Shown piece by piece: positions 6,828 to 60,378 of a stretch of 64,000 nt of DNA. The stretch's first letter is position 1. Every line of letters begins with the position of its first letter. Origin of the DNA: Marinomonas communis (GTDB lineage: Bacteria > Pseudomonadota > Gammaproteobacteria > Pseudomonadales > Marinomonadaceae); assembly GCF_004363305.1 (NCBI RefSeq), contig NZ_SNZA01000004.1, forward strand, positions 310,001 through 374,000, given 5' to 3'. The translations under genes and the position numbers were made by a program. A model generated the notes under the pieces. It did not search any database and was not told the DNA's origin. It saw nothing but the letters and a program-made list of their open reading frames with translations.

Positions 6828-6840
6828 ATCCATCTCTTAC

Positions 6841-42441: not shown

Positions 42442-45400
42442 TCAATCTTCAATCGGGCGCTTAGGGAATAAGCGACGAATCAAGACAAAGAACAACGGTA
42501 CAAAGAAGATCGCCAATAACGTTGCCGTTAAGGTTCCCCCCACAATACCAGTACCGATTGAGATTCGGCTGTTAGCACCCGCACCAGAAGACAGTGCCAG
42601 TGGCAATGTACCAACGATAAAGGCAAGCGATGTCATGATAATCGGACGAAGACGTAAACGTGCGCCTTCCGTTGCCGCATGCCACACATTTTCACCTCGA
42701 CGATAGGCCGCTTCAGCAAACTCAACGATCAAAATGGCGTTCTTCGACGACAGACCTATGATGGTCAATAGGGCGACCTGGAAGTACACATCATTTTGTA
42801 GATCACGCAAGTAGATAGCCCCCGCTGCACCGATCACCCCAAGTGGGATAACCATGATTACCGAGAACGGTACCGTCCAACTTTCATACAAAGCAGCAAG
42901 ACATAAGAAAACCACTAAGATAGAAACCGCATACAAGAAGTACGTTTGACCGCCCGATTGCTGCTCTTGGTAGGACAAACCACTCCAAGCATAAGAAGTA
43001 CCTTGCGGTAAGCCTTCAGCGATACGAGCCATTTCAGTCATGGCATCGCCAGAACTTAGACCCGCTGCAGCCGAACCTTGGATCTCATAAGAAGGTAAGC
43101 CATTGAAGCGCGCAAGTGTTTTAGGACCATACGTCCACTCACTGTCAGCAAACGCGGAGAATGGCGTCATTTTGTCACCGTCACCACGTACGTACCAGTG
43201 CTGTAAATCTGATGGCGCACCACGGTATTCCGCGTCACCTTGAACATACACACTCTTCACACGACCACGGTCGACAAAGTCATTCACGTAGTTACCTGCC
43301 CAAGCGTAAGACAATGTACTACTGATGTCTGCCATGGAGAGTCCTAATGCCGAGGCTTTTTCTTGGTCGATGTCGATATGAAGTTGTGGGGTTTCCCCTT
43401 GTCCACCCATACGAACACCACTCAAGATCTGACTCGCACGAGCATCGCTTAATAACTTATCACGCATCTCAAGCAAGGTTTCACGGCTCGTATTACCCGC
43501 AGCCTGAAGCTCGAAGGTAAAGCCATTACTTTGGCCAAGACCACGAATTGAAGGCGGTAACAATGAGAAGATCTGCGCATCACGAATACCCGCTAAACCT
43601 GGGTAAGAACGCGCAACGATATCCGCCGCAGAACTTCCAGGCTCGGTACGCTCATCCCAATGTTTGAGCAATACGAATGCCATACCCGCGTTTTGGCCTG
43701 TTCCCATAAAGCTGAAGCCAGAGATGGTAAAGATAGAGTCCACATAGTCTTTTTCATTGTTCAAGAAATGATCTTGGACTTTATCCATAACCTCTTCAGT
43801 ACGAGCCATCGAAGCCCCTTCCGGCAAGGATACGATGACCATGACGTTACCTTGGTCTTCAGTCGGTAAGAAGCCCGTTGGCGTGTTGATCATCAAGTAA
43901 CTCATACCAGCAATGATCACCAAGTAACCTGCTAACCAACGTACTGGTTGCTTGATAAGCGTCGCCACTCGACCACTGTAACGTTCCGTCCAACGGTCAA
44001 AAGTACGGTTAAACCAACCACCTAAGCCACGCTTTTCTTTGTGGTGACTTGGTTTCAAAAGCGTGGCACAAAGGGCTGGCGACAAGGTCAATGCCACGAT
44101 CACCGACAACACCATAGACGACACAATGGTGATAGAGAATTGGCGATAAATTACCCCAGTTGAACCACTGAAGAAGGCCATCGGTACGAATACCGCGGAC
44201 AGAACTACCGCGATACCAATCAATGCGCTGGTGATTTCTTTCATCGACTTGATGGTGGCTTCACGAGCTGACAGTTTCTCTTCTTCCATTACCCGTTCAA
44301 CGTTTTCCACCACAACGATGGCATCGTCCACAAGTAGACCAATCGAGAGCACTAAACCAAACATGGTCAAGGTATTGATTGAGTAACCAAACGCCTGCAA
44401 AACACCAAAAGTACCTAGCAAGACAACAGGTACTGCGATCGCAGGGATTAAGGTTGCACGCCAGCTTTGTAGGAACACAAACATCACGATGACAACCAGA
44501 ACAATCGCCTCAAACAGTGTTTTCACCACCTCTTCAATAGAGATCTTGATGAACTCTGTTGAGTCTAGTGGAAGAGCTGTTTTATAGCCTTCAGGTAAGC
44601 CTCGCTTCAATTCTTCTATGGCTGCTTTTACACGCTCAGAGGTTTCCAATGCGTTCGCACTAGGCGCCAGCATCACCGCCATACCTGTAGAAGGGTGGCC
44701 ATTTAAGCGTGGAGTAAAGTTGTAGTTCTCACTACCTAACTCAACCGTCGCTACATTTTTCAGACGAACCGTCGCACCATTGTCATCATAGTTAAGGATG
44801 ATGTTCTCAAACTCTTCCGGTGTTTCTAGCTTTGACTGAGCCGTTACCGTCGCATTTAGCTCTTGGCCGTTTGCGATGGGGTAACTCCCCAAGCTACCGG
44901 CTGCTACTTGAACGTTTTGCGCCTCAATGGCATTCGCAATATCTGATGGTATTAAGTTATAAGTCGCTAATTTAAGTGGATCTAACCAAATACGCATAGC
45001 GTAAGACGAGCCGAATACCTGAACACTACCTACCCCTTCAAGTCGAGAAATAGGGTCCTGCATATTCGATACTAGGTAGTCAGATAAGTCGCTAGCGTTA
45101 TCCTGATCGGTTTCATCATAAAGTGCCATGATCAACAGGAAGTCAGACTGAGACTTGGTCACAGTCACCCCTTGTTGCTGCACAGAAGACGGCAGGTTTG
45201 ACGTGATCTGCTGAACTTTATTCTGAACTTGTACCTGAGCGGTATCCGCATCGGTTCCTTGCTCAAAGGTCACATCAATACTGGCACGACCAGTAGAGCT
45301 ACTGCTTGAAGAGAAGTACAGTAAGCCATCTAGACCAGTAAGCTGCTGCTCAATAATTTGTGTAACACTGTTTTCAACCGTTTCCGCCGATGCACCGTTG

Positions 45401-45549
45401 TAGGTAGCAGAAATTCGGATAGAAGGCGGTGCTACATTCGGATATTGGGAAATAGGCAATTGTGTGATGGCAAGAATACCTGCCAACATGATGACAATTG
45501 ATATTACCCAAGCAAAGACTGGGCGCTTAACAAAAAACTGCGCAATCAT
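42442..45549 (-). CDS. RND efflux pump inner-membrane transporter (AcrB/MexB-like)
   Basis: A 1035-residue HAE1-type RND pump. Proton-relay residues are visible as the DD pair in GLLVDDAIVVVENVER (helix 4) and Lys in SSKNAILIVEFAE (helix 10). Twelve membrane helices and two large periplasmic loops are in the usual places; the N-terminus FFVKRPVFAWVISI is canonical. It exports hydrophobic drugs, detergents or similar compounds with a proton antiport. Partner is the lipoprotein 18 bp upstream; no outer-membrane channel gene is in the operon, so a TolC encoded elsewhere is presumed. Confidence 0.96.
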   Translation of the reverse strand: MIAQFFVKRPVFAWVISIVIMLAGILAITQLPISQYPNVAPPSIRISATYNGASAETVENSVTQIIEQQLTGLDGLLYFSSSSSSTGRASIDVTFEQGTDADTAQVQVQNKVQQITSNLPSSVQQQGVTVTKSQSDFLLIMALYDETDQDNASDLSDYLVSNMQDPISRLEGVGSVQVFGSSYAMRIWLDPLKLATYNLIPSDIANAIEAQNVQVAAGSLGSYPIANGQELNATVTAQSKLETPEEFENIILNYDDNGATVRLKNVATVELGSENYNFTPRLNGHPSTGMAVMLAPSANALETSERVKAAIEELKRGLPEGYKTALPLDSTEFIKISIEEVVKTLFEAIVLVVIVMFVFLQSWRATLIPAIAVPVVLLGTFGVLQAFGYSINTLTMFGLVLSIGLLVDDAIVVVENVERVMEEEKLSAREATIKSMKEITSALIGIAVVLSAVFVPMAFFSGSTGVIYRQFSITIVSSMVLSVIVALTLSPALCATLLKPSHHKEKRGLGGWFNRTFDRWTERYSGRVATLIKQPVRWLAGYLVIIAGMSYLMINTPTGFLPTEDQGNVMVIVSLPEGASMARTEEVMDKVQDHFLNNEKDYVDSIFTISGFSFMGTGQNAGMAFVLLKHWDERTEPGSSAADIVARSYPGLAGIRDAQIFSLLPPSIRGLGQSNGFTFELQAAGNTSRETLLEMRDKLLSDARASQILSGVRMGGQGETPQLHIDIDQEKASALGLSMADISSTLSYAWAGNYVNDFVDRGRVKSVYVQGDAEYRGAPSDLQHWYVRGDGDKMTPFSAFADSEWTYGPKTLARFNGLPSYEIQGSAAAGLSSGDAMTEMARIAEGLPQGTSYAWSGLSYQEQQSGGQTYFLYAVSILVVFLCLAALYESWTVPFSVIMVIPLGVIGAAGAIYLRDLQNDVYFQVALLTIIGLSSKNAILIVEFAEAAYRRGENVWHAATEGARLRLRPIIMTSLAFIVGTLPLALSSGAGANSRISIGTGIVGGTLTATLLAIFFVPLFFVLIRRLFPKRPIED

Positions 45550-45567
45550 AAACTTGGCTCCTTTAAT

Positions 45568-46761
45568 TTACTGGCCAGTGGTCGCAGCATTTGCTTCAAC
45601 AATTCGACCCGTTTGTGGATCACGTTGCAGTTCCACCGCATTCACTTCAGCACCTGGGCGAATTTTCAAACTGCCTTGAACGACGACACGATCACCCGCT
45701 TTGATACCGTCCGTCACATACCATTGATTACCAATGGAACGCTCAGTCTCTAGAATGCGCTGCTCAACTTTGTTATCAGCATTGACAACGTATGCAATGG
45801 CATTGCCTTTCACATCGCGGGAAACGCCCTGTTGAGGCACTAGAATCGCTTCGCTGTCATTCAGATCGTTAATCTGTCCGCGGACAAACATCCCTGGCAA
45901 CAGTAGACCATCAGGGTTATCAAACTCCGCACGTAAGGTAACACTGCCGGTCATCTCATCTACGTTCACTTCACGAGTTTTCAAACGACCTTTGTAAGGG
46001 TACTCAGAGCCATCTTCTAAAGTTAAGGTAACGCTTTGATCTCCTAAGCTGACGTGATCTAGGCTCAATAGCGTTCTCTGACGAAGCTGTTCAACACTGG
46101 TTTGAGCCAAGTCAACGAACATAGGGTCCATGGCACGGATAGTGGTCATCGCCGTCGATTGACCAGCTGTCACCAAGGCACCTACTGTGACATCTGAGAT
46201 GCCAATTTTGCCATCGATTGGGGCGGTGATTTTCGTGTAAGCCAAATCAATCTTGGCGCTGTTTAATGCCGCAACTGCACGTTTTTCATCCGCAACTGCA
46301 GATAGATAGGCAACGTTTGCATCATCTAAGTTTTGCTGAGAAACGTTGTTACGTTCTTTAAGCTGACGGTAACGCTCGTATGTTTGCTTCGTCGAGGTTA
46401 GCGTGGCACGAGCGCTGTCTAGGTCTGCCTGTGCCTGCTCTAAATTGGATTCATATACTGAGTCATCTAGCTGATAAAGTAGGTCTCCCGCCGATACAGT
46501 CTGCCCCTCTTCAAACAAGCGCTTTTCCACGATACCGCCTACCTGTGGACGAATTTCTGCTTCAAGGCTAGATTTGGTACGGCCAGGCAATTCAGACGTT
46601 AGCTTTACTTCTTGCTTTTCAATGGTGATGACACCTACTTGAGTTTTTGGTGCTTGCTGAGCTGGCGCGCTCGCTGCGGCACTGCTTTCGCTTTCTTGAC
46701 AACCCGCCAAAATCGCCGAGGCCAGTACAACCCCTGTAATCAATATGTTCCTAGACAGCAT
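45568..46761 (-). CDS. RND efflux periplasmic adaptor lipoprotein (AcrA/MexA-like)
   Basis: The membrane fusion protein of the pump, 397 residues. Lipobox ASAILAGC puts the lipidated Cys at position 21. The protein then has a split lipoyl domain (EIRPQVGGIVEKRLFEEG... and APIDGKIGISDVTVG), a helical hairpin between them, and the beta-barrel and membrane-proximal domains (GMFVRGQI, VPQQGVSRDVKGNA). The ATG at 46761 is chosen over an upstream in-frame TTG because it starts the signal peptide; its Shine-Dalgarno (GGAG) is 12 bases away, somewhat far. Transcribed with the pump gene and divergently from its TetR repressor. Confidence 0.95.
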   Translation of the reverse strand: MLSRNILITGVVLASAILAGCQESESSAAASAPAQQAPKTQVGVITIEKQEVKLTSELPGRTKSSLEAEIRPQVGGIVEKRLFEEGQTVSAGDLLYQLDDSVYESNLEQAQADLDSARATLTSTKQTYERYRQLKERNNVSQQNLDDANVAYLSAVADEKRAVAALNSAKIDLAYTKITAPIDGKIGISDVTVGALVTAGQSTAMTTIRAMDPMFVDLAQTSVEQLRQRTLLSLDHVSLGDQSVTLTLEDGSEYPYKGRLKTREVNVDEMTGSVTLRAEFDNPDGLLLPGMFVRGQINDLNDSEAILVPQQGVSRDVKGNAIAYVVNADNKVEQRILETERSIGNQWYVTDGIKAGDRVVVQGSLKIRPGAEVNAVELQRDPQTGRIVEANAATTGQ

Positions 46762-46777
46762 ATACTGTGGTGACTCC

Positions 46778-46809
46778 AATAATTATCATTTGAGAATGAG
46801 CGTTCATTC
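46778..46809. promoter_or_regulatory. Operator region of the RND pump: TetR-type dyad and Fur-like sequence
   Basis: GAATGA and TCATTC (46794-46809, centre GCGT) form a dyad midway between the divergent pump and TetR genes and are a candidate site for the repressor. Immediately beside it, 46778-46791 read on the minus strand is AAATGATAATTATT, differing in one base from the core AATGATAATCATT of Fur boxes. Confidence 0.5.
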
Positions 46810-46862: not shown

Positions 46863-47435
46863 ATGAAAAAAACTCCGGTAAATGAGCAAGAACGCCGCCA
46901 GCAGATTATGAATGCATTTATCGTGCACGTTGTGGAAAAAGGCTTTCATAAGGCCAGTATGGCCGACATCGCGAAAACAGCTGAACTCAGTGTAGGCCAA
47001 ATTTATCGTTATTTTGCCCACAAAGAGGACATTATCCGCGCTGTTGTGGAGCAGAAAACCGAAGAGTACCTTCTAATGATGGAGGAGTTTCTCGAAAAGA
47101 AAGGCTGGCTGGCACGAATGTTCGAGCCGGAGCACGAACAAGAATTCCACACAGAACGCATTTTAAACATGGAAATCAAAGCTGAGGCGAATCGCTCAGC
47201 GGCATTAGCCAAAATCCAGTACGATGCGGATCACCGCCTGACCGAGCACGCGGTGAAGTTGGTGCGTCAACGTTATGCCCTAGACGACGAAACGGACATC
47301 CGCGCTAGAGTCCAGTTTTTGGTAGCGCTAACCGATGGTTTATTCCATCGTAGAGGCTTTTTTGCAGGGCCTTTTGATGCAGCATCTCACCAACTATTTC
47401 AGCATATGCTGAACCAACTTTTCCCCGATAATTAA
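46863..47435 (+). CDS. TetR-family transcriptional regulator of the RND pump
   Basis: A 190-residue protein with an N-terminal TetR helix-turn-helix (residues 10-58, KASMADIAKTAELSVGQIYRYF) and a helical ligand-binding domain. It is divergent from the pump operon, an AcrR-like arrangement, and so probably represses it and itself until a pump substrate binds. The last four bases overlap those of the convergent EamA gene. Confidence 0.93.
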   Translation: MKKTPVNEQERRQQIMNAFIVHVVEKGFHKASMADIAKTAELSVGQIYRYFAHKEDIIRAVVEQKTEEYLLMMEEFLEKKGWLARMFEPEHEQEFHTERILNMEIKAEANRSAALAKIQYDADHRLTEHAVKLVRQRYALDDETDIRARVQFLVALTDGLFHRRGFFAGPFDAASHQLFQHMLNQLFPDN

Positions 47436-49683: not shown

Positions 49684-49699
49684 TGGCTCAATAATTGCT
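49684..49699 (+). promoter_or_regulatory. Putative sigma-54 promoter of the ATP-grasp/alpha-E/transglutaminase cluster
   Basis: TGGCTCAATAATTGCT differs from the sigma-54 consensus TGGCACR-N4-TTGCW only at position 5. The invariant GG and GC are separated by the required 10 bases. Transcription would start near 49710, about 115 nt before the first gene. No clear NtrC site was seen in the short upstream interval. Confidence 0.6.
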
Positions 49700-49824: not shown

Positions 49825-51279
49825 ATGGATACACTCACTAATAACTATAACGCTGGCGTTTTTTTCGATGAGTTAATTGACGCTCAAGGGAAAGCCAGAA
49901 AACCGGCAAAAGAATTGCTAGATTATCTAGAAAGCCTCCCTACTGAAGAACTTGAGAAGCGGCGCCTAACCGCCGAAGCAACGGTTCAGGAAATGGGAAT
50001 TAGCTTTACCGTTTACACTGAGGAAGGCAACATTGACCGAGCCTGGCCATTTGATATCGTTCCTCGCACCATCGACGCTAAAGACTGGAAAATCACCGCA
50101 GAAGGATTAAAGCAACGACTCACCGCCCTCAATCGCTTCATCGACGACCTCTACCACGATCAACGCTGTATCAAAGATGGCATCATCCCAGAACACATCA
50201 TCAAAGATTCAAAAAACTTCCGCCCAGAATGCGTTGGCGTCTCACCCAAGTACGGTGTTTGGGCGCATATTTGTGGCACAGATTTAGTGCGCGATGAGCA
50301 CGGAGACTTTTACGTTCTGGAGGATAATTTAAGAGTGCCATCTGGTGTCTCTTACATGCTTGAAAACCGTGCCATTACCAAACGTGTTCTACCTGAATTA
50401 TTTGAAAACGACGAAATTTTACCTGTTGGGTCGTACACCTCTGACTTGTTTGACACCCTCGCGGCTTTGTCTCCACGAGACATTGAATGTCCAGAAATCG
50501 TTGTCCTAACACCAGGGATCTACAACTCAGCGTATTTTGAACATGCGTTTCTCGCACAGCAGATGGGGGTTGAGTTACTCGAAGGTGCGGATTTATTTGT
50601 GGACGAGGACGACTGCGTTTACATGAAGACCATTTACGGTCCTGAACGCGTGGATGTGATCTATCGCCGTATTGACGACTTATTCCTTGATCCAGAAGCG
50701 TTCCACCCTGACTCCGTACTCGGTGTTCCAGGGTTAATGCGCGCTTGGAAAGCCGGCAACGTCGCTTTGGCCAATGCACCAGGTGCTGGTGTTGCAGACG
50801 ACAAGGTAGTCTACGCCTATGTACCTGACTTGATCCGTTATTACCTTGACGAAGAACCTATTCTTAAAAACGTAAAAACCTATCTTTGCGATAACGAAGA
50901 AGATCGCGAATACGTGCTAGCACATCTGGATGAGTTAGTGGTCAAGCCTGCTAATGAATCAGGCGGCTATGGCATGCTTGTTGGCCCCCATTCGACTAAG
51001 AAAGAGCAACAGATCTTTGCCGAGCTGATCAAAGAAAACCCGCGCAACTATATTGCTCAGCCAACCCTTAAGCTTTCTACGGCGCCAACCTTGATCGGTA
51101 AAGGCTCTCTGGAACCGCGTCATTTGGATTTACGTCCGTTTATTTTACAAAGCAACGAAACTTACGTGACCACAGGTGGCTTGACACGAGTAGCGATGAA
51201 AAAAGGTTCTCTCGTCGTCAATTCGTCACAAGGCGGTGGTAGTAAAGATACTTGGATTGTGGACACAAAAGGAGCTTAA
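49825..51279 (+). CDS. Circularly permuted ATP-grasp protein (COG2308-type)
   Basis: First gene of a five-gene peptide-modification-type cluster. ATP-grasp ligases join a carboxylate to an amine with ATP; in this family the strand order is circularly permuted. The 484 residues keep the motifs expected for nucleotide and metal binding: VLEDNLRVPSG (E166-D167-N168), the glycine-rich VKPANESGGYGM loop at K374, and LDLRPF near 430. It looks catalytically complete. The ATG at 49825 stands 11 bases after AAAGGGG; TTG two codons earlier is possible, and the frame remains open to 49783. It is followed two bases later by an alpha-E protein. The natural substrate is unknown. Confidence 0.92.
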   Translation: MDTLTNNYNAGVFFDELIDAQGKARKPAKELLDYLESLPTEELEKRRLTAEATVQEMGISFTVYTEEGNIDRAWPFDIVPRTIDAKDWKITAEGLKQRLTALNRFIDDLYHDQRCIKDGIIPEHIIKDSKNFRPECVGVSPKYGVWAHICGTDLVRDEHGDFYVLEDNLRVPSGVSYMLENRAITKRVLPELFENDEILPVGSYTSDLFDTLAALSPRDIECPEIVVLTPGIYNSAYFEHAFLAQQMGVELLEGADLFVDEDDCVYMKTIYGPERVDVIYRRIDDLFLDPEAFHPDSVLGVPGLMRAWKAGNVALANAPGAGVADDKVVYAYVPDLIRYYLDEEPILKNVKTYLCDNEEDREYVLAHLDELVVKPANESGGYGMLVGPHSTKKEQQIFAELIKENPRNYIAQPTLKLSTAPTLIGKGSLEPRHLDLRPFILQSNETYVTTGGLTRVAMKKGSLVVNSSQGGGSKDTWIVDTKGA

Positions 51280-51281
51280 TC

Positions 51282-52229
51282 ATGCTTTCAAGAGTTGCAG
51301 AACGCCTATACTGGAGTGCTCGCTACCTAGAGCGCGTGGAAAATACGGCTCGCCTGGTCAGTGTATACGACGATTTATTATTCGATTTACCCCACAACGT
51401 GGTACAAATTTCTTGGTACAACCTTATCGAGATCAACAGCGGCGTTGAAGCGTTTAATAACCGCTATAAAGTTCGTGATGAACGCAACGTGGTGAAGTTT
51501 CTTTTATCAGACGATGACAACCCAAGCTCCCTACTATCATCATTAAAAATGGCCCGTGAAAACATCCGTACAACTCGAGATGTCTTGCCCAATGAAATGT
51601 GGGAGTTAGTGAATGAGTTGGACTTATTTGCCAAACAAAATATTAAACAAGGCATCAACCGCTCTGCCCGCCATGCTTACCTCAATACCATTATTGAAGG
51701 TTGCCAGAAAATCATTGGCTTGTTAGCAGCAACCATGGACCGTGATGCAGGCTGGCAGTTCTTGATCTTAGGACGTTATCTAGAACGAGTTGATATGAAC
51801 ACTCGTATTATTGATGCGGCGACCTCCTTGATGAGTCAATCGCAAGCCGAGCAAGATATGGAGTTGGGCCAAGTCGTTTGGTCCAAGGTGTTAAAGTCAC
51901 AAAGTGCTTACTTAAGTTTCCGTCGCACCATGCGCAGTTCTATTCGCGGCGCCAAGGCGGTGACCTTCTTATTGAATGATAAATACTTCCCGCGCTCACA
52001 GCGATACTGCCTAGAGCAGATCAAGCTGGCAGCAGCGGAACTGCCTCGCTCTGGCCTCGTTATTCTGAGCGCAGACAAATTATTGGAAAATACCAAAGCA
52101 GTGGAGCATTCAAGCGATTTGAACAGTGAGTTCAGTGATTATTTGAACGATATTCAGCTTGATATCATTACCCTGCATCACCAGATCACGGAAAACTGGT
52201 TTAACTTCCAGAAAGGAGAAGCGGCATGA
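51282..52229 (+). CDS. Alpha-E domain protein (COG2307-type)
   Basis: A helical protein of 315 residues made of the alpha-E domain, a family known from gene clusters with permuted ATP-grasp enzymes and of unknown biochemical role. The start MLSRVAERLYWSARYLERVENTARL is typical (Arg/Glu-rich helix 1) and RYLERVDMNTRI near residue 167 is a second copy of the same motif. GGAG is nine bases before the ATG at 51282. Two bases separate it from the ATP-grasp gene and it overlaps the next gene by four bases, so the three are translationally coupled. It probably works with the ATP-grasp enzyme as a physical partner. Confidence 0.93.
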   Translation: MLSRVAERLYWSARYLERVENTARLVSVYDDLLFDLPHNVVQISWYNLIEINSGVEAFNNRYKVRDERNVVKFLLSDDDNPSSLLSSLKMARENIRTTRDVLPNEMWELVNELDLFAKQNIKQGINRSARHAYLNTIIEGCQKIIGLLAATMDRDAGWQFLILGRYLERVDMNTRIIDAATSLMSQSQAEQDMELGQVVWSKVLKSQSAYLSFRRTMRSSIRGAKAVTFLLNDKYFPRSQRYCLEQIKLAAAELPRSGLVILSADKLLENTKAVEHSSDLNSEFSDYLNDIQLDIITLHHQITENWFNFQKGEAA

Positions 52230-55200
52230 CCATCCGCGTAGCGATTCAGCATAAAACCACTTATGAGTTTGATCGCTTTATTAATGTTTCGCCGCACATT
52301 TTACGTCTGCGTCCGGCACCTCATTCACGTACCCATATTCATGGTTATTCATTAAAAGTGCTGCCAGAAGATCATTTTATCAACTGGCAACAAGACCCTT
52401 ATGGTAACTACCAAGCGCGTTTGGTATTTCCAGAGAAAATGAAAAAACTGGAATTTGCGGTCGAAGTGATCGCCGACATGACGGTCATTAATCCGTTCGA
52501 CTTCTTTATCGAAGAGTACGCGGAGCACTTTCCATTTAAATACGACAAGCAATTACTAGAAGAGCTCACGCCTTATTTACATAAGTCAGAAGACTGCCCG
52601 GAGCTGCAAGCTTGGCTAAAGACGGTTGATCTTAAGAGCACACCCATTGTCGACTTTTTGGTGAGTTTGAACACTCGCCTGTCCAATGAAATTGATTACG
52701 GCATTCGCTTAGAACCCGGTGTGCAAACCTGTGAAGAAACGCTCACACTTAAAAAAGGTTCATGCCGCGACACCTCTTGGCTGTTGGTTCAGATCCTGCG
52801 CCATTTAGGCTTAGCAGCACGTTTTGCTTCGGGTTACTTAGTACAGCTGACATCTGATATCAAAGCGTTAGACGGTCCTTCTGGACCAGAGGAAGACTTC
52901 ACCGACTTACACGCTTGGTGTGAAGTATACTTACCCGGTGCGGGCTGGGTGGGTCTTGATCCGACCAGCGGCTTGTTTGCCGGTGAAGGACATATTCCAT
53001 TGGCCTGTACCGCAGAGCCAGTCTCTGCAGCGCCAATTACTGGCTTTACGGATGAATGTGAATGCGAATTTAGCTACACCAACATCGTTACTCGTATCCA
53101 CGAAGACCCGCGCGTTACTAAGCCTTACAGTGATGACGAATGGGAGAACATCAAAGCCCTTGGTCATGCAGTGGATAAACGTCTAGAACAAGGCGATGTA
53201 CGCCTAACCATGGGCGGCGAGCCAACCTTTGTCTCCATTGATGATATGGACTCTGAACAATGGAACACTGGCGCCCTGGGGGCTGACAAGCTGCGCCTTG
53301 CGAAAGATCTCTTGTTGCGCATGAAGGCTAAGTTTGGTACCAACGGCCTACTGCATTACGGCCAAGGCAAATGGTATCCAGGCGAAGAAGTGCCACGCTG
53401 GGCGCTAGGTTGCTTCTGGCGTACTGATGGCGAAGCTCTGTGGCAGGACCCAAAATACCTTGCCCGAGTCGACAAAGACTACGGCTTTGATGAAAGTCAT
53501 GCAGGCAAATTTGGCCAAGCTCTATGTGAATACTTGGGTTTGGAGTCTCAGTATCTACAGCCTACTTACGAAGACACACTCTATTACCTATGGTTAGAGC
53601 GCTCTTTGCCTGACGATGTGAACCCACGCAAAGCATCACTCAAAGATGATTTAGAACGCCGCCGCTTGGCGAAACTGCTAAACCGTGGCCTTGAGCGCGT
53701 CAGTGGTTATGTCTTACCGATCGAGTTTAATGGTTCCCAATGGCAAAGTAGCCTCTGGCCAATGCGTTCTGATGTGATCACGCTTATCCCTGGCGATAGT
53801 CCAATGGGTTACCGTTTGCCGCTAAACTCGTTACCGGCGATCAGTGAAGAAGAGCAAACTCCTGAGCGTGATCCATTTGCACCACGTGAACCACTGCCTG
53901 TTTACAGCCAATCCGCTTCGACAGCGGGTTCTGCTCAGACACAAACCAAGCAAAAATTGACGGATACAGACGAGGCAAGCAGTACGATCCTCAAAAACGT
54001 TATTCGAACAGCACTTTGTATCGAAGCGCGCGATGGTCGATTGCATGCGTTCTTACCGCCAGTGAGCTTCCTTGAACATTATGTTGCGTTAATCAATGCC
54101 ATTGAAACTGTGGCAAAACAATTGCAAATGCCGATTGTTATCGAAGGCTATGAGCCACCAAAAGATTACCGTTTGCAAAAGTTCTTGATCACCCCGGACC
54201 CTGGCGTTATCGAGGTCAACATTCACCCAGCGAAGAATTGGAAAGAGCTTTTATACAACACAGAAACATTGTACGAGGAAGCCTATCAATCTCGTTTGGG
54301 CACAGAGAAGTTTATGCTGGATGGTCGTCATACTGGGACGGGCGGTGGTAACCACGTCACCCTTGGTGGCGTAACGCCAGCTGACAGTCCGCTGTTACGT
54401 CGCCCTGACCTACTTCGCAGTTTGGTGACGTTCTGGCAGCACCACCCAGGATTATCTTATTTATTCTCAGGCATGTTTATTGGCTCAACCAGCCAAGCGC
54501 CACGTCCAGACGAAGGCCGTGATGAAGCCTTGTACGAAATGGAAATTGCTTTCCAGAATATCCCGACGGGTTTGGTAGACGAGCCGTGGTTGGTGGATCG
54601 TCTGATGCGTAACTTACTGGTAGACATTACCGGTAATACACACCGCTCTGAATTCTGTATCGACAAACTCTATGCCGCAGGTTCAAGCAGTGGCCGCCAA
54701 GGCTTGCTTGAATTCCGTGGTTTTGAAATGCCGCCCCATGCACGTATGTCGCTCGTACAAATGCTACTGCTACGTTGTTTAGTCGCACGCTTCTGGCACG
54801 AGCCTTACCACAAACCTTTGGTTCGTTGGGGCACATCATTACACGACAAATTTATGATGCCGCACTTTGTTTGGCAGGACATCAAAGAAGTCGTGGATGA
54901 TCTTCAAGCTCATGGTTTGCCATTTAAACTTGAATGGTTAGCACCGTTTGAAGAATTCCGCTTCCCGCATTATGGCCGTCAGCAAATTGATGATATTGAG
55001 CTTGAACTGCGTTGGGCGATTGAGCCTTGGCATGTACTCGGTGAAGAAATCACTCAATCAGGTACAGCACGCTATGTGGACTCGTCGGTGGAACGTTTGC
55101 AAGTACGTCTAAGTGGTCTAACTGAAGGACGCTATGTTCTGTCTTGTAACGGTCGTCGTGTCCCACTGCGTAGCACGGGACGTAAAGGTGAAGCGGTTGG

Positions 55201-55579
55201 TGCGGTACGCTACAAGGCGTGGGCACCACCGTCTGCATTGCACCCAACGCTGGGCACAGACACTCCGTTAGTGTTTGATTTAATCGATACATGGAACGGT
55301 GTTTCTATTGGTGGTTGTACTTATCATGTTAGCCACCCAGGTGGCCGTAACTATGACACCTTGCCGGTCAACAGCAACGAAGCCGAAGCGCGTCGCGTTA
55401 ACCGTTTCTGGGATCATGGCTTCACACAAGGTGCGTTAGTTCCACCTCCGGAATACAGTGCGCTTCGCAGCGTGACAGAGCATGACAAGGCCACTAGACC
55501 CATGTCACCGCCACAGGAAGAGATATGTCATGAATATCCGCATACGCTCGACCTAAGGAAGAGGTATACTAGGCTCTAA
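52226..55579 (+). CDS. Transglutaminase-like protein fused to DUF2126
   Basis: A 1117-residue two-part protein. The N-terminal ~280 residues are a bacterial transglutaminase-like cysteine protease fold with an intact triad: Cys180 (GSCRDTSW), His229 (DLHAWCEVYLPG) and Asp245 (GLDPTSG). The remainder, from about residue 325 (MGGEPTFVSIDDMD), is DUF2126, which is known in this fusion and looks like a carboxylate-amine-ligase-type domain by literature prediction. Residues ~545-575 are a low-complexity linker (QSASTAGSAQTQT). It overlaps alpha-E by four bases. The transglutaminase part may hydrolyse or transfer an amide of the product made by the ATP-grasp enzyme; this is inference from co-occurrence. 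Confidence 0.92.
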   Translation: MTIRVAIQHKTTYEFDRFINVSPHILRLRPAPHSRTHIHGYSLKVLPEDHFINWQQDPYGNYQARLVFPEKMKKLEFAVEVIADMTVINPFDFFIEEYAEHFPFKYDKQLLEELTPYLHKSEDCPELQAWLKTVDLKSTPIVDFLVSLNTRLSNEIDYGIRLEPGVQTCEETLTLKKGSCRDTSWLLVQILRHLGLAARFASGYLVQLTSDIKALDGPSGPEEDFTDLHAWCEVYLPGAGWVGLDPTSGLFAGEGHIPLACTAEPVSAAPITGFTDECECEFSYTNIVTRIHEDPRVTKPYSDDEWENIKALGHAVDKRLEQGDVRLTMGGEPTFVSIDDMDSEQWNTGALGADKLRLAKDLLLRMKAKFGTNGLLHYGQGKWYPGEEVPRWALGCFWRTDGEALWQDPKYLARVDKDYGFDESHAGKFGQALCEYLGLESQYLQPTYEDTLYYLWLERSLPDDVNPRKASLKDDLERRRLAKLLNRGLERVSGYVLPIEFNGSQWQSSLWPMRSDVITLIPGDSPMGYRLPLNSLPAISEEEQTPERDPFAPREPLPVYSQSASTAGSAQTQTKQKLTDTDEASSTILKNVIRTALCIEARDGRLHAFLPPVSFLEHYVALINAIETVAKQLQMPIVIEGYEPPKDYRLQKFLITPDPGVIEVNIHPAKNWKELLYNTETLYEEAYQSRLGTEKFMLDGRHTGTGGGNHVTLGGVTPADSPLLRRPDLLRSLVTFWQHHPGLSYLFSGMFIGSTSQAPRPDEGRDEALYEMEIAFQNIPTGLVDEPWLVDRLMRNLLVDITGNTHRSEFCIDKLYAAGSSSGRQGLLEFRGFEMPPHARMSLVQMLLLRCLVARFWHEPYHKPLVRWGTSLHDKFMMPHFVWQDIKEVVDDLQAHGLPFKLEWLAPFEEFRFPHYGRQQIDDIELELRWAIEPWHVLGEEITQSGTARYVDSSVERLQVRLSGLTEGRYVLSCNGRRVPLRSTGRKGEAVGAVRYKAWAPPSALHPTLGTDTPLVFDLIDTWNGVSIGGCTYHVSHPGGRNYDTLPVNSNEAEARRVNRFWDHGFTQGALVPPPEYSALRSVTEHDKATRPMSPPQEEICHEYPHTLDLRKRYTRL

Positions 55580-55601
55580 TCTTTATTAGAACGTCTTATT
55601 T

Positions 55602-58172
55602 ATGACCGAATCCACCATTGCAAAACTAGCGGCGCAGGATCAAGCGCCGCTGACTGCTCCGTATGTTGCACCGGATCGTGCTTACGATGAAGCCTTTTCT
55701 GAAACCAGACAACCACGTTTGCCTTGGCAACCTGTGATGTCGGCAGTGCATCAATTAGGAACAGAAGGGATGCAGGATAGGCACCTTCGTGCGCAACGTA
55801 TTTTGCGTGACGACGGTGCCACGTATAATTTGAAAAGTGACCCTTTATCACCGAATGTTTGGTCACTCGATATCATTCCAAACGTCATAGATAAATCAGA
55901 GTGGCTCAATCTAGAAACTGCGCTCAAACAAAGAGCTCATTTATTTGATCTGATTTATAAAGACCTTTATGGCGAGCAAAGACTGCTGAAAGAAGGTGTC
56001 TTGCCTTCTGAAATCGTTTTCTCTCATCCTGGTTTTCTTAGACAGTGCCACGGTATGCATTGGCCGAGCGAAACTGCGCTTACTTTCCACGCAGTAGATC
56101 TTGTCAGAGATCAGTCGGGACAGTTCATAGCCACAGGCGATCGAACTCAAGCCCCGAGTGGTGCAGGATACGCCCTTGAAAACCGCACGGTGGTCTCAAG
56201 AGTGCTGCCGTCTTTGTTTCGTGATAGCCAAACCATGCGCTTGGCAGGCTTTTTCCAGACTGTCCGCGAAACCCTGAGCCAGCTCGCCAGTGATCTAACC
56301 GACTCCCCTCGTATTGTTGTGCTAACCCCTGGAGCGTATAGCTCGACTTACTTCGAGCAAGCTTACTTGGCTAACCACTTAGGCTATCCACTGGTTCAAG
56401 GTGGTGATTTGACGGTACGCAATGGCAAAGTTTGGATGAAGTCATTAAACGGTTTGTCACGTGTTGATGTCATTCTGCGTCGTGTTGAAGACGCCTACTG
56501 TGATCAGGCTGAGTTGCGCTCGGACTCGACTTTAGGGGTTCCGGGGTTATTGGAAGTTGCCCGTCAAGGCAATGTGATTATTGCAAACCCTTTGGGTACA
56601 GGACTTCTTGAAACGCCAGCGCTGCTAGCTTTTCTGCCACAGATTAGCCAAACCCTACTCGACGAACCTCTGTTGCTGCCATCCGTCACCAGCTATTGGT
56701 GTGGTGAGCAAGAGCATTTGGCTTATGTGCTGAATAACCTTCACCAGTTAATCATCAAACCGGCTTTTCGAAGCATTGATAACAAGAGTATCTATTGTCA
56801 TCAGCTTGACGAGAAAGCGTTATCAGAAGTGCGCGCAAAAATCCTCGCAGATCCAGTAGCGTATGTTGCCCAAGACTATATTCCTGGTTCTGTGACACCG
56901 GTTTGGGACAATGGCGAAATGCTTGCTCGTCCTTGTATTTTACGAACCTTCAGCGTCGCTAATGAAAGCGGTTACTGTGTGATGCCAGGTGGATTGTCTC
57001 GCGTAGCAGAATCCACCGCTGAAGCCATTGTTAGTAAAAACCTGTCTGGCTCGCGAAGCAAAGACATGTGGGTACTCAGTGACACCACTGAAACCGATAT
57101 AGACGTACCACTGGACAACTTACCAATCAGCCAAGCACAAGTGGCCAACCTCCCAAGCCGAGTAATCGAAAACTTATTCTGGTTTGGTCGCTACGCAGAA
57201 CGCGCGGAAATGAGTTTGCGTTTGATGCGAACGATCTTTAAACAGCTTAACGGTATTGATCATTTCCCAATCGAAAGTCGTGAAGTTCTGCTAGGTGCCA
57301 TGTCTGAAATCAGTGGTTCACAGCCCGGCTTTATAGAGCAGCCAGAACTTTTGATGCAACCAAATGATGAGCTAGCGGCACTGGTTTCTGACGGTCAACG
57401 AGTTGGCTCAATCAAGTCTAACTTACAACTGATGCTGGCTTGTGCTGAACAAGTTAAAGAAATGCTGTCTGCGGACACTCGTATCATTTTGAATGAGCTG
57501 CGCGACCACATCCACAGTGTCGACCGTGCATACGTCAATGGCTTACCTGCTGTTCCAGAAGAATCTTTAGACGGTTTAGTCACCTCTTTATTGGCGATTT
57601 CAGGTTTGAACCATGAGAGCATGCTGCGCGGTATGGACTGGATGTTCCAAGAAATTGGACGTCGTACTGAGCGTGCGTTATTGACTGCTAATTTATTGAA
57701 AACGACCTTATCAAAACCTCTACCAAGCTTGCAGCAACAGCAAGTGCTTGAATCGGTCTTATTAAGTGTCGAAGCACTGATCTCGTTCAGACGTCGCTAC
57801 CGCACTCGGGCACGAGTGTCCTACGGTTTAGATCTATTAATGATTGACCGAAGTAACCCTCGTTCTTTGATTTATCAAGTGGATCAGCTGCGTAAATACT
57901 TAGAAGAATTGCCGCAATCTGACCAAGTATCATTGGGGCTTTCTCGAGAGAAGCGGCTCATTATTAAGTCACTAAACGATATCCAATTAGCAGACTTAGA
58001 GTCGCTTGCGCAAATCGAAGAAAGTACTCAAACCCGCGCTCAATTGACCGAATTGATGGGCCAAGTGATCGAGCAGTTAGAACAACTGACCACGATTATC
58101 AGTGATAAGTACTTTGATCATACCGCTGGGCCGCAACAGCTCATCAAAGCGAAATGGAAGAATAATGTATGA
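55602..58172 (+). CDS. Permuted ATP-grasp :: alpha-E fusion protein
   Basis: An 856-residue fusion: ATP-grasp-like part up to about residue 500, alpha-E part from about 520 (VIENLFWFGRYAERAEMSLR) to the end. It is paralogous to the products of the first two genes. In the ATP-grasp part, the position of E166-D167-N168 reads G-D-R (ATGDRTQAPSG, D180), and the glycine-rich loop after K386 is replaced by PAFRSIDNKSIYC. Other structural motifs (VLTPGAYSSTYFE, STLGVPGLLE) are kept. It may be a non-catalytic partner or use another nucleotide mode. It begins 22 bp after the DUF2126 gene and overlaps the next gene by four bases. Confidence 0.9.
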   Translation: MTESTIAKLAAQDQAPLTAPYVAPDRAYDEAFSETRQPRLPWQPVMSAVHQLGTEGMQDRHLRAQRILRDDGATYNLKSDPLSPNVWSLDIIPNVIDKSEWLNLETALKQRAHLFDLIYKDLYGEQRLLKEGVLPSEIVFSHPGFLRQCHGMHWPSETALTFHAVDLVRDQSGQFIATGDRTQAPSGAGYALENRTVVSRVLPSLFRDSQTMRLAGFFQTVRETLSQLASDLTDSPRIVVLTPGAYSSTYFEQAYLANHLGYPLVQGGDLTVRNGKVWMKSLNGLSRVDVILRRVEDAYCDQAELRSDSTLGVPGLLEVARQGNVIIANPLGTGLLETPALLAFLPQISQTLLDEPLLLPSVTSYWCGEQEHLAYVLNNLHQLIIKPAFRSIDNKSIYCHQLDEKALSEVRAKILADPVAYVAQDYIPGSVTPVWDNGEMLARPCILRTFSVANESGYCVMPGGLSRVAESTAEAIVSKNLSGSRSKDMWVLSDTTETDIDVPLDNLPISQAQVANLPSRVIENLFWFGRYAERAEMSLRLMRTIFKQLNGIDHFPIESREVLLGAMSEISGSQPGFIEQPELLMQPNDELAALVSDGQRVGSIKSNLQLMLACAEQVKEMLSADTRIILNELRDHIHSVDRAYVNGLPAVPEESLDGLVTSLLAISGLNHESMLRGMDWMFQEIGRRTERALLTANLLKTTLSKPLPSLQQQQVLESVLLSVEALISFRRRYRTRARVSYGLDLLMIDRSNPRSLIYQVDQLRKYLEELPQSDQVSLGLSREKRLIIKSLNDIQLADLESLAQIEESTQTRAQLTELMGQVIEQLEQLTTIISDKYFDHTAGPQQLIKAKWKNNV

Positions 58173-59050
58173 GATATCGAGTTAGACACTTAACGGAATA
58201 CCTGTACGGAGCGCCTGTTACCTTGTGTTATAACATGGCTCACCTGCTGCCGCGCGATACTCATAATCAACGTTGCTTAAGCCGACGCATTGCGGTTACA
58301 CCAACCCCTGTTTATCAAACAGAAGGGGTGGATTACTTCGGCAACCCAACGTTTTATTTTTCCGTCCAAGAACCTCATAAGAAGCTGGCCATCGATGTCG
58401 AATGTTATTTTGAGATCGAGCAGAACGACTTGTCTAATCAACTAACTCTGCACGACCTTAGCTGCGCGGAGCTGCGCGCCCTCATTCAAGCATCCCAGTC
58501 ACCTGAACTACGCATGGTTAAGGAGTACACGTTAGACTCCGTGCATATCCATCGATCAAAAGAACTGGGCGAATATGCACGCCGCTGCTTCACCGATGAC
58601 ACCCCTGTTCTACAAGCCTGCATGGATTTTACTCATCAAATTTTTGAAGAGTTTACCTTTGACCCTGCTGCAACCAGCGTCAGCACACCACCGGAACAAG
58701 TGTTAAAAGATAAGCGTGGTGTTTGTCAGGATTTTGCCCACTTGGCCATTGCCTGCATTCGCTCTCTTGGACTGCCTGCGCGCTATATGAGTGGCTACTT
58801 GGAAACGCTGCCACCGCCAGGGCAAGAGAAATTAGTCGGTGCCGATGCATCCCACGCTTGGTTTGCCGTTTTCATTCCTGATCTCGGCTGGGTAGAATTC
58901 GATCCGACCAATGATTTAATGCCTAATGAGCAGCATATCGTAACCGCATGGGGCCGAGACTACGCCGATGTCACGCCACTACAAGGCGTTATCTTTGATG
59001 GTGGCGACAGCCAAGCACTTAACGTATCAGTTGATGTGCAGCGTGTGTAA
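58169..59050 (+). CDS. Transglutaminase-like protein (COG1305-type)
   Basis: A 293-residue stand-alone transglutaminase-like protein with an N-terminal bacterial transglutaminase N domain (MRYRVRHLTEYLYGAPV...) and an intact triad: Cys186 (GVCQDFAH), His229 (ASHAWFAVFIPD) and Asp245 (EFDPTNDL). It has no signal peptide, so it acts in the cytoplasm. It overlaps the fusion gene by four bases and ends the cluster. In this gene neighbourhood the family is predicted to process peptides or amides made by the ATP-grasp partner. Confidence 0.94.
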   Translation: MRYRVRHLTEYLYGAPVTLCYNMAHLLPRDTHNQRCLSRRIAVTPTPVYQTEGVDYFGNPTFYFSVQEPHKKLAIDVECYFEIEQNDLSNQLTLHDLSCAELRALIQASQSPELRMVKEYTLDSVHIHRSKELGEYARRCFTDDTPVLQACMDFTHQIFEEFTFDPAATSVSTPPEQVLKDKRGVCQDFAHLAIACIRSLGLPARYMSGYLETLPPPGQEKLVGADASHAWFAVFIPDLGWVEFDPTNDLMPNEQHIVTAWGRDYADVTPLQGVIFDGGDSQALNVSVDVQRV

Positions 59051-59082: not shown

Positions 59083-60378
59083 ATGACTTTTGCAAAACTT
59101 GGTCTATCTAAGGCCATTACTCACACGCTTGATGAACTTGGCTACGAAAAACCTACGCCGATTCAAACCCAAGCTATCCCCCTGATCCTGTCAAAAAAAG
59201 ATGTCTTGGCAGCTGCCCAGACAGGCACAGGAAAAACAGCGGCTTTCACACTACCTTTGCTAGAACAGCTCAAAGACGGTGATCGTGCGGACTCGAAACA
59301 AGTTCGAGCCCTGATATTGGCCCCGACTCGCGAGCTTGCCAGCCAAATCGGTGAAAGTGTTCGCAGCTACAGCCGCGGACTCGGTTTACGCAGCCAAACC
59401 ATTTTTGGTGGCGTGAAGGCTTTCCCTCAAATTAATGGACTGCAACGTGGTGCAGACATTTTGGTTGCGACCCCTGGACGCTTAATAGATCTCGTTAAAC
59501 AAGACGCCGTGCTATTCGATTCACTACAATTCTTAGTGCTCGATGAAGCTGACCGTATGCTGGACCTCGGGTTTGAAGAAGCCCTAAATGAGTTGCTGAC
59601 ACTGCTGCCTAAAAGCCGCCAAACCATGATGTTCTCAGCGACTTATTCGGATGCGGTCAAGACACTTTCAGCGCTATGGCTGAATAACCCTGAAGAGGTC
59701 GCCGCGAAACAAAGCAACCGCGTCGCAGCCACAGTCCGTCACCAAATTTATACCGTGGATAAGGTACGTAAGCCTGAACTGTTAGCGGAATTATTAAACC
59801 GCCAACATTGGCAACAAGCACTGATTTTTACCAAGACAAAACGCGGTGCTGACGAAATCACAGATATTCTACAAGCGGAAGGGTTTTCGGCCCTAGCGAT
59901 GCATGGTGACAAGCCACAATACGCTCGCCTAGCGGCTTTTAACGCCTTTAAGTCGGGGGAATTAGCGTATCTTGTTGCCACAGATGTAGCGGCTCGAGGT
60001 TTGGATATTGAAGGGCTACCCGTTGTGATTAATATGGATCTGCCGCACGTTGCGGAGGACTATATACACCGCATTGGACGAACCGGTCGAGCGGGTCAAG
60101 ACGGTCGTGCTGTATCGTTGGTCTGTGCCGATGAAGCCGAGAACCTACGCGCCATTGAAGCACTCCTAAAACAGCGCGTTCCACGTAAAGAAATACCCGG
60201 CTTTGAAGCTGAACATAGAGTGCCTGATACGCATCCACGCAGCCAAAAGAAGTCAAAAGGTGCAGCCCCAGAGACGCATAAAACAAAAGCCAAAGGGAAA
60301 GTAGAACCACCAAAGCCAGATGTGACGAAAGGTCCTGGTCTTCGTAGCAACCCATTTGCTAAGGCCAAAAAGAAGTAG
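59083..60378 (+). CDS. DEAD-box RNA helicase (RhlE-like)
   Basis: A 431-residue ATP-dependent RNA helicase: Q motif (GYEKPTPIQTQAIP), Walker A AAQTGTGKT, PTRELA, TPGR, DEAD, SAT, then ARGLDIEG and HRIGRTGR. The C-terminal 60 residues are a basic, Lys-rich tail, as in RhlE, which acts in ribosome assembly and RNA decay. It starts 32 bp after the transglutaminase gene on the same strand and could be co-transcribed, but its function is not obviously linked. RhlE is the closest match; I leave the symbol empty. Confidence 0.94.
   Translation: MTFAKLGLSKAITHTLDELGYEKPTPIQTQAIPLILSKKDVLAAAQTGTGKTAAFTLPLLEQLKDGDRADSKQVRALILAPTRELASQIGESVRSYSRGLGLRSQTIFGGVKAFPQINGLQRGADILVATPGRLIDLVKQDAVLFDSLQFLVLDEADRMLDLGFEEALNELLTLLPKSRQTMMFSATYSDAVKTLSALWLNNPEEVAAKQSNRVAATVRHQIYTVDKVRKPELLAELLNRQHWQQALIFTKTKRGADEITDILQAEGFSALAMHGDKPQYARLAAFNAFKSGELAYLVATDVAARGLDIEGLPVVINMDLPHVAEDYIHRIGRTGRAGQDGRAVSLVCADEAENLRAIEALLKQRVPRKEIPGFEAEHRVPDTHPRSQKKSKGAAPETHKTKAKGKVEPPKPDVTKGPGLRSNPFAKAKKK

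What the first reader, a model, noticed from the sequence alone, without database searches (positions are those of the whole stretch)
49825..59050. Duplicated peptide-modification cluster: ATP-grasp, alpha-E, transglutaminase-DUF2126, fusion, transglutaminase
Five coupled genes (4-bp overlaps at 52226 and 58169) encode two full sets of ligase, alpha-E and transglutaminase-like proteins, both transglutaminase triads being intact. Comparative genomics literature predicts such clusters make or process peptide or amide conjugates, often with the proteasome-like Anbu protease; no Anbu or other NTN-hydrolase gene is in this window. Substrate and product are unknown to me, so this is the best candidate for an undescribed biochemical system here.
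Basis: partly seen in the sequence, partly recalled or inferred. Interest (0 to 1): 0.75.

Follow-up and report, generated by a model that had tools for sequence, protein, structure and literature searches.

The report
Nitrogen-stress ligase cluster with pseudoenzyme
Five neighbouring genes in a marine bacterium encode a widespread but still unexplained set of proteins that look able to join and cut peptide-like bonds, and the one that looks like a second joining enzyme has lost its catalytic parts in every relative examined, so it is probably a helper and not an enzyme.

Summary
The five genes are real, intact and as placed: P1 circularly permuted ATP-grasp, P2 alpha-E, P3 transglutaminase-like (TGase) domain fused to DUF2126, P4 ATP-grasp/alpha-E fusion, P5 TGase. 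They are not two full ligase sets. P4 belongs to an ancient sister family of P1: 0 of 81 P4 proteins keep the E-x-N pair or the glycine loop, against 64 and 63 of 64 P1 proteins; P4's alpha-E half lost P2's REN motif too (0 of 79 versus 55 of 63). P4 is still conserved: a pseudoenzyme. DUF2126 may be the second ligase: its model resembles glutamine synthetase weakly, but a profile test failed. The genome has no Anbu, but has an unlinked zinc peptidase (Peptidase_Mx) found in 34 of 39 DUF2126 species of the genus and 0 of 9 others. A sigma-54-type promoter element precedes P1 and recurs in relatives; published data on related operons support nitrogen-limitation control, though one P. putida rpoN mutant still induced them. 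The cluster type is known and common; substrate and product remain unknown. New, as far as my searches reached: the pseudoenzyme result, the two-module structure and the peptidase coupling.

The parts
49684..49699 (+). sigma-54-type -24/-12 element TGGCTC-N5-TTGCT, starting 141 bases before the P1 start codon
   Evidence: One mismatch to the recalled consensus; aligned in 4 of 5 congeneric upstream regions; similar sites before 30 of 51 P1-first units (shuffled 2.5%, background 30 of 698).
49825..51279 (+). P1: circularly permuted ATP-grasp (484 aa), intact signature residues
   Evidence: PF14403 549 bits; PDB 3n6x 9e-162; residue conservation.
50320..50328 (+). P1 E166-D-N168, predicted Mg-ATP ligands (role recalled from glutathione synthetase / GspS)
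   Evidence: 64 of 64 P1 rows keep E and N.
50962..50973 (+). P1 glycine-rich loop GGYG (380-383)
   Evidence: 63 of 64 P1 rows; the last has an X.
51282..52229 (+). P2: alpha-E protein (315 aa) with ER motifs and RENxRxxR motif
   Evidence: PF04168 258.6 bits; motif counts.
52226..55579 (+). P3: TGase-like domain (C180/H229/D245) fused to DUF2126 (residues 276-1111), possible GS-like amidoligase
   Evidence: PF09899 1328 bits, PF01841 60 bits; AlphaFold2 model mean pLDDT 77; Foldseek; profile test negative.
55602..58172 (+). P4: fused pseudo-ATP-grasp + alpha-E (856 aa)
   Evidence: PF14403 487.8 and PF04168 221 bits; degeneracy; AlphaFold2 model mean pLDDT 84.
56136..56150 (+). P4 residues 179-183 G-D-R-T-Q in place of P1's E-D-N-L-R
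   Evidence: D-R-x-Q in 67 of 81 P4 rows, 0 of 64 P1 rows.
56757..56786 (+). P4 residues 386-395: position of the lost glycine-rich loop
   Evidence: GGYG in 0 of 81 P4 rows.
58169..59050 (+). P5: TGase-like protein (293 aa), C186/H229/D245
   Evidence: PF01841 79 bits; triad.

Best explanation
This is an Anbu-less copy of a widespread nitrogen-limitation-induced peptide or amide-conjugation system made of two linked modules. Module 1 (P1+P2) is the ATP-grasp ligase with its alpha-E partner: P1 activates a carboxylate as acyl phosphate and forms an amide bond. Module 2 (P3+P4+P5) has its own probable ligase, the glutamine-synthetase-like DUF2126 half of P3, plus two Cys-His-Asp TGase-fold enzymes that transfer or cleave amide bonds. 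P4 is a fused, catalytically dead copy of the P1-P2 pair that binds and positions or regulates the other subunits or the substrate. Turnover of the product falls to a hydrolase: Anbu in many relatives, and here probably the unlinked zinc peptidase Peptidase_Mx. Transcription starts from a sigma-54 promoter when nitrogen is short. Shown here: gene anatomy, triads, the loss of ATP-grasp residues in P4, the ancient P1/P4 split, the promoter-like site and its recurrence, the absence of Anbu and the Peptidase_Mx co-occurrence. Published for relatives: nitrogen-limitation induction, NtrC dependence in B. cenocepacia, and phosphate release from ATP by a P1 homologue. Inferred: the P1-P2 complex, the chemistry of DUF2126, the scaffold role of P4, the role of Peptidase_Mx, sigma-54 use in this organism, and any product.
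For: P4 degeneracy: E166 and N168 both kept in 64 of 64 P1 and 0 of 81 P4 rows; DDK 64/64 vs 0/81; GGYG 63/64 vs 0/81; NSSQGGG 63/64 vs 0/81; alpha-E REN 55/63 in P2 vs 0/79 in P4. P4 is still constrained: replacement D-R-x-Q in 67 of 81 rows, pN 0.147 vs pS 0.82 against Marinomonas atlantica, P4 and P1 on two sides of one branch, SH-aLRT 100. Modules: all 120 DUF2126 genomes have alpha-E; 111 of 123 genomes with two or more alpha-E have DUF2126, against 9 of 89 with one. Peptidase_Mx: 58 of its 72 carriers among 398 genomes have DUF2126; odds ratio 6.2 within alpha-E genomes (p 3e-8), 6.3 with one genome a genus (p 3e-5); in the genus 34 of 39 vs 0 of 9 (p 1.2e-6, kinship not corrected). Promoter. 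DUF2126 fold: five GS entries at Foldseek probability 0.82-0.98. ATP use by a P1 homologue: PMC6376114 section 8. Nitrogen control in relatives.
Against: DUF2126: hhalign against glutamine synthetases of the order found nothing (probability 0.1), and the Foldseek E-values for GS are only 0.014-0.07. Regulation: in P. putida PP_2686-2688 still rose 14-20 fold on nitrogen limitation in an rpoN mutant, as in the wild type (PMC7801951 Table 2; urtA also still rose there); no NtrC-like site above chance lies upstream of P1; 1 of 5 congeneric upstream regions lacks the element; 21 of 51 P1-first and 46 of 73 P3-first units have none. Peptidase_Mx: unlinked here, no sigma-54-like site before it or before the gene upstream, missing from 5 of 39 DUF2126 species of the genus; of 120 DUF2126 genomes 27 have neither Anbu nor Peptidase_Mx and 40 have both. 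Over all 398 genomes Anbu is also associated with DUF2126 (odds ratio 5.0), though not within alpha-E genomes (0.66, p 0.19). Mx-first, Anbu-first and P4-first units have no sigma-54-like site (0 of 5, 0 of 9, 0 of 10). The Y. bercovieri study saw no Anbu-operon protein complex and no stimulation by glutamine or glutamate. The roles of E166/N168 are recalled by analogy.
Confidence: 0.47

Rival explanations
1. P4 is still an enzyme: its remodelled site (D-R-x-Q, kept K374 and K474-D-x-W equivalents) binds another nucleotide or acyl donor, so there really are two working ATP-grasp-fold ligases with different chemistry.
For: P4 keeps the equivalents of D153 (74 of 81), K374 (68), R182, E239, D256, N317, D475, W477 (81 each), R437 and K474 (80 each); the replacement motif is itself conserved (67 of 81); its model is a glutathione-synthetase-like fold (3n6x, 8fbz, 2io7).
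Against: The E-x-N pair and the GGYG loop are gone in 81 of 81, with loop lengths varying; P4 evolves faster than P1.
Confidence: 0.15
2. The cluster is mainly a nitrogen-scavenging proteolysis or deamidation system: the TGase-fold proteins act as proteases or amidases on protein glutamine or isopeptide bonds, and the ligases recycle the fragments.
For: Nitrogen-limitation induction of relatives; the nearest solved TGase is annotated as a putative cysteine protease (3isr); Anbu and Peptidase_Mx are hydrolases by family; PMC6376114 lists a version of this hypothesis (passages).
Against: It does not by itself explain two ligase-like families and two alpha-E copies; no peptidase activity was seen for Anbu on the substrates tested (PMC6376114, passages).
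Confidence: 0.2
3. The cluster makes one secreted or storage small molecule (a modified peptide or amide), a biosynthetic gene cluster not tied to protein turnover.
For: ATP-grasp, GS-like and TGase-fold enzymes occur in peptide natural-product pathways (recalled); no protein substrate is known.
Against: No small precursor family was seen to recur, but only ORFs of 80 aa or more in 30 loci were compared, so a short precursor would be missed. Spread over at least eight named phyla (P4 rows) suggests housekeeping.
Confidence: 0.15

Closest known systems
Anbu operon (ATP-grasp, alpha-E, transglutaminase, Anbu), predicted peptide-modification system of Iyer et al. 2009
   Same: Intact CP ATP-grasp P1, alpha-E P2 and a TGase gene together; published nitrogen-limitation induction of that operon in P. 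putida (PMC8050072, PMC7801951, passages)
   Different: No Anbu in the cluster or genome; adds DUF2126, the pseudo-ATP-grasp/alpha-E fusion and a second TGase
Methylobacillus flagellatus putative glutathionylspermidine synthase, PDB 3n6x (CP_ATPgrasp_2)
   Same: P1 aligns over almost its whole length, E 9e-162, with the E-D-N, GGYG and NSSQGGG blocks present in the alignment
   Different: P4 shares the fold (Foldseek E 3.9e-29, 31% identity) but not these residues
Glutamine synthetase family (e.g. 4hpp) for DUF2126
   Same: Five GS entries at Foldseek probability 0.82-0.98 among the 50 rows shown; Pfam calls DUF2126 a putative amidoligase
   Different: No sequence-profile similarity; weak Foldseek E-values
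Peptidase_Mx (PF15887 with PF10005 zinc ribbon)
   Same: Genome copy matches at 2.5e-101 and carries HEIGH; co-occurs with DUF2126
   Different: Unlinked here and outside the window; function untested

Membership tests
Anbu operon / Anbu peptide-modification system | CP ATP-grasp, alpha-E and TGase genes adjacent | tested here: met
Anbu operon / Anbu peptide-modification system | Anbu gene in the operon or genome | tested here: not met
   Only HslV found; Anbu profile no match in G000
Catalytically active CP ATP-grasp (P1) | E-x-N predicted metal ligands and glycine-rich loop | tested here: met
   residue roles recalled
Catalytically active CP ATP-grasp (P4) | E-x-N predicted metal ligands and glycine-rich loop | tested here: not met
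   0 of 81 rows, window included
Glutamine-synthetase-like amidoligase (DUF2126) | GS fold and sequence relationship to GS | tested here: inconclusive
   Foldseek probability 0.82-0.98 but E 0.014-0.07; hhalign negative
TGase-fold Cys-His-Asp enzymes (P3 N-terminus, P5) | Catalytic triad | tested here: met
   110 of 110 and 79 of 79 rows; P3 model matches 3isr, E 7.4e-13
sigma-54 / NtrC regulon | -24/-12 promoter element | tested here: met
   a consensus match, not proof of use
sigma-54 / NtrC regulon | NtrC binding site upstream | tested here: inconclusive
   No match above chance; recalled consensus only
sigma-54 / NtrC regulon | Nitrogen-limitation induction dependent on rpoN and ntrC in this organism | not testable with these tools
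   Relatives only, and mixed: NtrC-dependent and sigma-54 target in B. cenocepacia (PMC5491218); still induced in an rpoN mutant of P. putida (PMC7801951)

The most novel reading that the evidence does not exclude
Module 2 is an undescribed ligase holoenzyme in which a universally dead ATP-grasp/alpha-E fusion acts as an obligate scaffold or allosteric subunit for a glutamine-synthetase-like DUF2126 ligase and two TGases. Together with Peptidase_Mx it forms a reversible, Anbu-independent, nitrogen-starvation peptide-conjugation cycle found across several bacterial phyla.
Probability: 0.2. Interest if true: 0.75.

Novelty: new member of a known kind. Interest (0 to 1): 0.45.

Why it matters
The gene set is common in bacteria and related operons are strongly induced by nitrogen limitation in the few species tested, yet I found no published substrate or product for it. 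Knowing that only one of the two ATP-grasp copies can be an ordinary ligase, that the DUF2126 protein is the candidate second ligase, and that a particular zinc peptidase travels with it turns a vague five-gene prediction into a short list of experiments. A pseudoenzyme kept across several phyla usually marks a regulated multi-subunit machine.

Tried and rejected
Anbu elsewhere in the genome: rejected. A recent local duplication: rejected by the P1/P4 tree. P4 as a decaying pseudogene: rejected on pN far below pS (Ks is saturated, so no exact ratio is claimed) and a conserved replacement motif; the 81 P4 rows are open frames by construction, so broken copies would not have been counted. Glutamine-synthetase homology by profile: not found. 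GCS2 relatives in the order were only weak hits and were not used further. Recurring neighbours in 30 loci of the order: besides Anbu (3 loci) and Peptidase_Mx (3 loci), clusters of an ABC-ATPase type (7 loci), a response-regulator type (4 loci) and three others (3 loci each) appeared; the labels are mine by eye, they are loose superfamily clusters and I did not follow them. NtrC sites: none above chance. The NCBIfam scan gave no useful model. Literature searches for a defined activity (listings, with passages read from some papers) found none in the held open library. Iyer et al. 2009 and Hervas et al. 2009 are not held, so whether Iyer et al. already noted the P4 degeneracy or the Peptidase_Mx link is unknown to me. 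Caulobacter hvyA (PMC10274813, passage) is a transglutaminase homologue with no shown link to this cluster. Foldseek rows for diphtheria toxin (probability 0.13 or less) are chance and were not pursued.

Limits: the named loci were found through P3, so they say nothing about P4 without P3. The sigma-54 weights are my own from a recalled consensus and the threshold was chosen on the first 30 loci; the 80 later loci (19 of 31 P1-first, 17 of 58 P3-first, background 27 of 532) are the fair test. Counts use one P1 and one P4 per locus with short fragments dropped (64 P1 and 81 P4 rows from 110 loci plus the window). The within-genus co-loss of DUF2126 and Peptidase_Mx rests on few events: in the 13 of 48 species with a marker tree only 2 independent pairs exist, too few for significance. 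Genome searches of order and phylum were even samples, not all genomes.
Full report
What is there. The window holds five intact genes on the + strand: P1 49825-51279, P2 51282-52229, P3 52226-55579, P4 55602-58172 and P5 58169-59050, with two 4-base overlaps. Pfam gives CP_ATPgrasp for P1, Alpha-E for P2, Bact_transglu_N + Transglut_core + DUF2126 for P3, CP_ATPgrasp + Alpha-E for P4 and Bact_transglu_N + Transglut_core for P5, all far above cut-off. The genome (G000, 3.85 Mb, 100% complete) has two alpha-E matches, both in this cluster. The closest named locus is from Marinomonas atlantica (P3 87% identical); the window is probably from a Marinomonas species.

The second ATP-grasp is a pseudoenzyme. 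In 30 loci of the order, P1 is 55-85% identical to the window and P4 31-66%. Many residues invariant in 27 of 27 P1 proteins are lost in P4. Over 110 loci plus the window, with one copy per locus and fragments dropped, E166 and N168 are both kept in 64 of 64 P1 and 0 of 81 P4 rows (E166 alone in 1 of 81); DDK 325-327 in 64 versus 0; GGYG in 63 (one X) versus 0; NSSQGGG in 63 versus 0. The alpha-E half shows the same: the REN of P2 is kept in 55 of 63 P2 rows and 0 of 79 P4 rows, whereas the first ER motif persists in 63 of 63 and 75 of 79. No ATP-grasp fused to alpha-E was classed with P1, so the split does not come from sorting degenerate copies into P4. A tree puts all 64 P1 and all 81 P4 rows on two sides of one branch (SH-aLRT 100; quick method, with several long P4 branches). 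P4 rows come from eight named phyla, with 29 rows not assigned by name. P4 is not decaying: pN 0.147 against pS 0.82 to M. atlantica, and a replacement D-R-x-Q signature in 67 of 81 rows. Its AlphaFold2 model (mean pLDDT 84) matches 3n6x, eukaryotic glutathione synthetases and GspS; the rows shown with high probability are all ATP-grasp structures, so none points to a known fold for the alpha-E half. That E-x-N and the glycine loop bind Mg-ATP is recalled from glutathione synthetase and GspS, not tested here.

P3 and the TGases. The Cys-His-Asp triads are complete in 110 of 110 P3 and 79 of 79 P5-type domain rows. The AlphaFold2 model of P3 (mean pLDDT 77) matches the TGase-like 3isr and TgpA best. 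In the 50 rows shown, the confident hits are TGases, enzymes that I place in the same papain-like/TGase fold from recall (1w4t, 8z4f, 3kd4, 9crn), and glutamine synthetases (4hpp, 11zs, 4s17, 5dm3, 1hto; probability 0.82-0.98, E 0.014-0.07). The output gives no residue ranges; that the GS hits fall on DUF2126 is inferred. A profile comparison of DUF2126 with glutamine synthetases of the order gave nothing. The GS-like reading agrees with Pfam's 'putative amidoligase' label but is not proven.

Two modules. Among 398 sampled genomes of the phylum, DUF2126 is in 120, alpha-E in 212, Anbu in 144 and Peptidase_Mx in 72. All 120 DUF2126 genomes have alpha-E; 111 of 123 genomes with two or more alpha-E copies have DUF2126, against 9 of 89 with one. 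In gene order P3-P4-P5 often travel together, while P1-P2 lie before, after, divergent or outside the fetched stretch. P3 occurs without P4 in the fetched stretch in 29 of 110 loci, some of them contig ends; 12 of these have P1 nearby and 7 both P1 and Anbu. Anbu lies near in 16 of 110 loci and Peptidase_Mx in 9 of 110.

A peptidase partner. This genome lacks Anbu but encodes a zinc-ribbon Peptidase_Mx with an HEIGH motif on another contig. Of 72 Peptidase_Mx carriers among 398 genomes 58 have DUF2126; within alpha-E genomes the odds ratio is 6.2 (p 3e-8), and with one genome per genus 6.3 (p 3e-5). Anbu is associated with DUF2126 over all 398 genomes (odds ratio 5.0) but not within alpha-E genomes (0.66, p 0.19; one per genus 0.57, p 0.22). 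Of the 120 DUF2126 genomes 40 have both peptidases, 35 Anbu only, 18 Peptidase_Mx only and 27 neither, so neither is indispensable. In 48 genomes of the genus, 34 of 39 DUF2126 carriers and 0 of 9 non-carriers have Peptidase_Mx (p 1.2e-6, not corrected for kinship), although the genes are far apart in single-contig genomes such as G551 (1.1 Mb) and G097 (122 kb). On a marker tree of 13 of these species only two independent pairs exist; Peptidase_Mx mostly goes the same way as DUF2126 and never the other. This is suggestive, not proof.

Regulation. A -24/-12 element (TGGCTC-N5-TTGCT) lies at 49684-49699 (47 such matches with up to 2 mismatches in the whole window are no more than chance) and aligns in 4 of 5 congeneric upstream regions. 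With my own weights, sites scoring 14 or more precede 30 of 51 P1-first and 27 of 73 P3-first units, against 2.1-2.5% in shuffles and 30 of 698 other genes; on the 80 loci not used to choose the threshold it is 19 of 31 and 17 of 58, against 27 of 532. P5-first units show 2 of 7; Anbu-first, Mx-first and P4-first units none (0 of 9, 0 of 5, 0 of 10). No NtrC-like site stands out. In print for relatives (passages and table rows seen): P. putida PP_2685 and PP_2688 are higher on nitrate than on ammonium and the PP_2688 promoter responds 3.7-fold to nitrogen depletion (PMC8050072); PP_2686-2688 rise 11-15 fold on nitrogen limitation in the wild type but also 14-20 fold in an rpoN mutant (PMC7801951), which speaks against a strict sigma-54 need there; PP2685-2687 rise in PMC3325844. 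In B. cenocepacia I35_5080-5083 fall 6.0-9.4 log2 units in an ntrC mutant and are listed among common targets of NtrC and sigma-54 (PMC5491218); their described domains (DUF404/407, DUF403, a TGase and a 'large' TGase protein) look like P1, P2, P5 and P3, which is my inference.

Mechanism and rivals. The most likely picture is one intact ATP-grasp ligase with alpha-E, a second GS-like ligase in P3, a dead fused paralogue as scaffold or regulator, two TGase-fold enzymes and an unlinked peptidase, acting together in nitrogen limitation. A P1 homologue from Yersinia bercovieri releases phosphate from ATP with no known substrate, and no complex with Anbu was seen (PMC6376114, passages and section 8). 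Rivals are an altered but active P4, a mainly proteolytic nitrogen-scavenging role, and a small-molecule pathway.

Novelty. The families, the conjugation prediction and the nitrogen link are known, and the cluster type is widespread. I found no paper in the held library that states the P4 degeneracy or the Peptidase_Mx link, but the founding paper is not held. I therefore call this locus a new member of a known kind, with results that sharpen an open question.

Noticed in passing
L095:7609-8694 (G000:C7:111608-112693): Peptidase_Mx gene starts 16 bases after a Nudix ORF that looks like nudC (6768-7592; label by eye, not scanned); whether this pairing is conserved in the genus was not examined.
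   Followed up: partly
window 59083-60378: A DEAD-box helicase gene starts 32 bases after P5 on the same strand. An 85% identical gene follows equally closely in M. atlantica (L104); in L105, L049 and L050 a helicase of only about 50% identity follows P5 after roughly 180-200 bases.
   Followed up: partly
L048, L062 and 15 other loci: 17 of 110 loci carry P3 with no P1, P2, P4 or P5 gene in the fetched stretch; several are short contigs, but L048 and L062 (one genus code) are 20 kb stretches inside longer contigs.
   Followed up: no
L034, L045, L047, L061, L114, L118, L119, L122, L152, L159, L160, L169, L171: 13 of 110 loci have more than one P5-type TGase domain besides P3's; in L045, L047 and L061 the extra one matches the window P5 only over its core (33-36% identity).
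   Followed up: no
window 42442-46779: AcrB-type efflux pump and membrane-fusion protein genes next to an ORF at 46863-47435 that looks like a TetR regulator (label by eye, not scanned).
   Followed up: no
G532, G535, G528, G545, G065, G557, G525, G125, G561: Nine of 48 genomes of the genus lack DUF2126 (one of them only 77% complete), so the cluster is dispensable there.
   Followed up: partly
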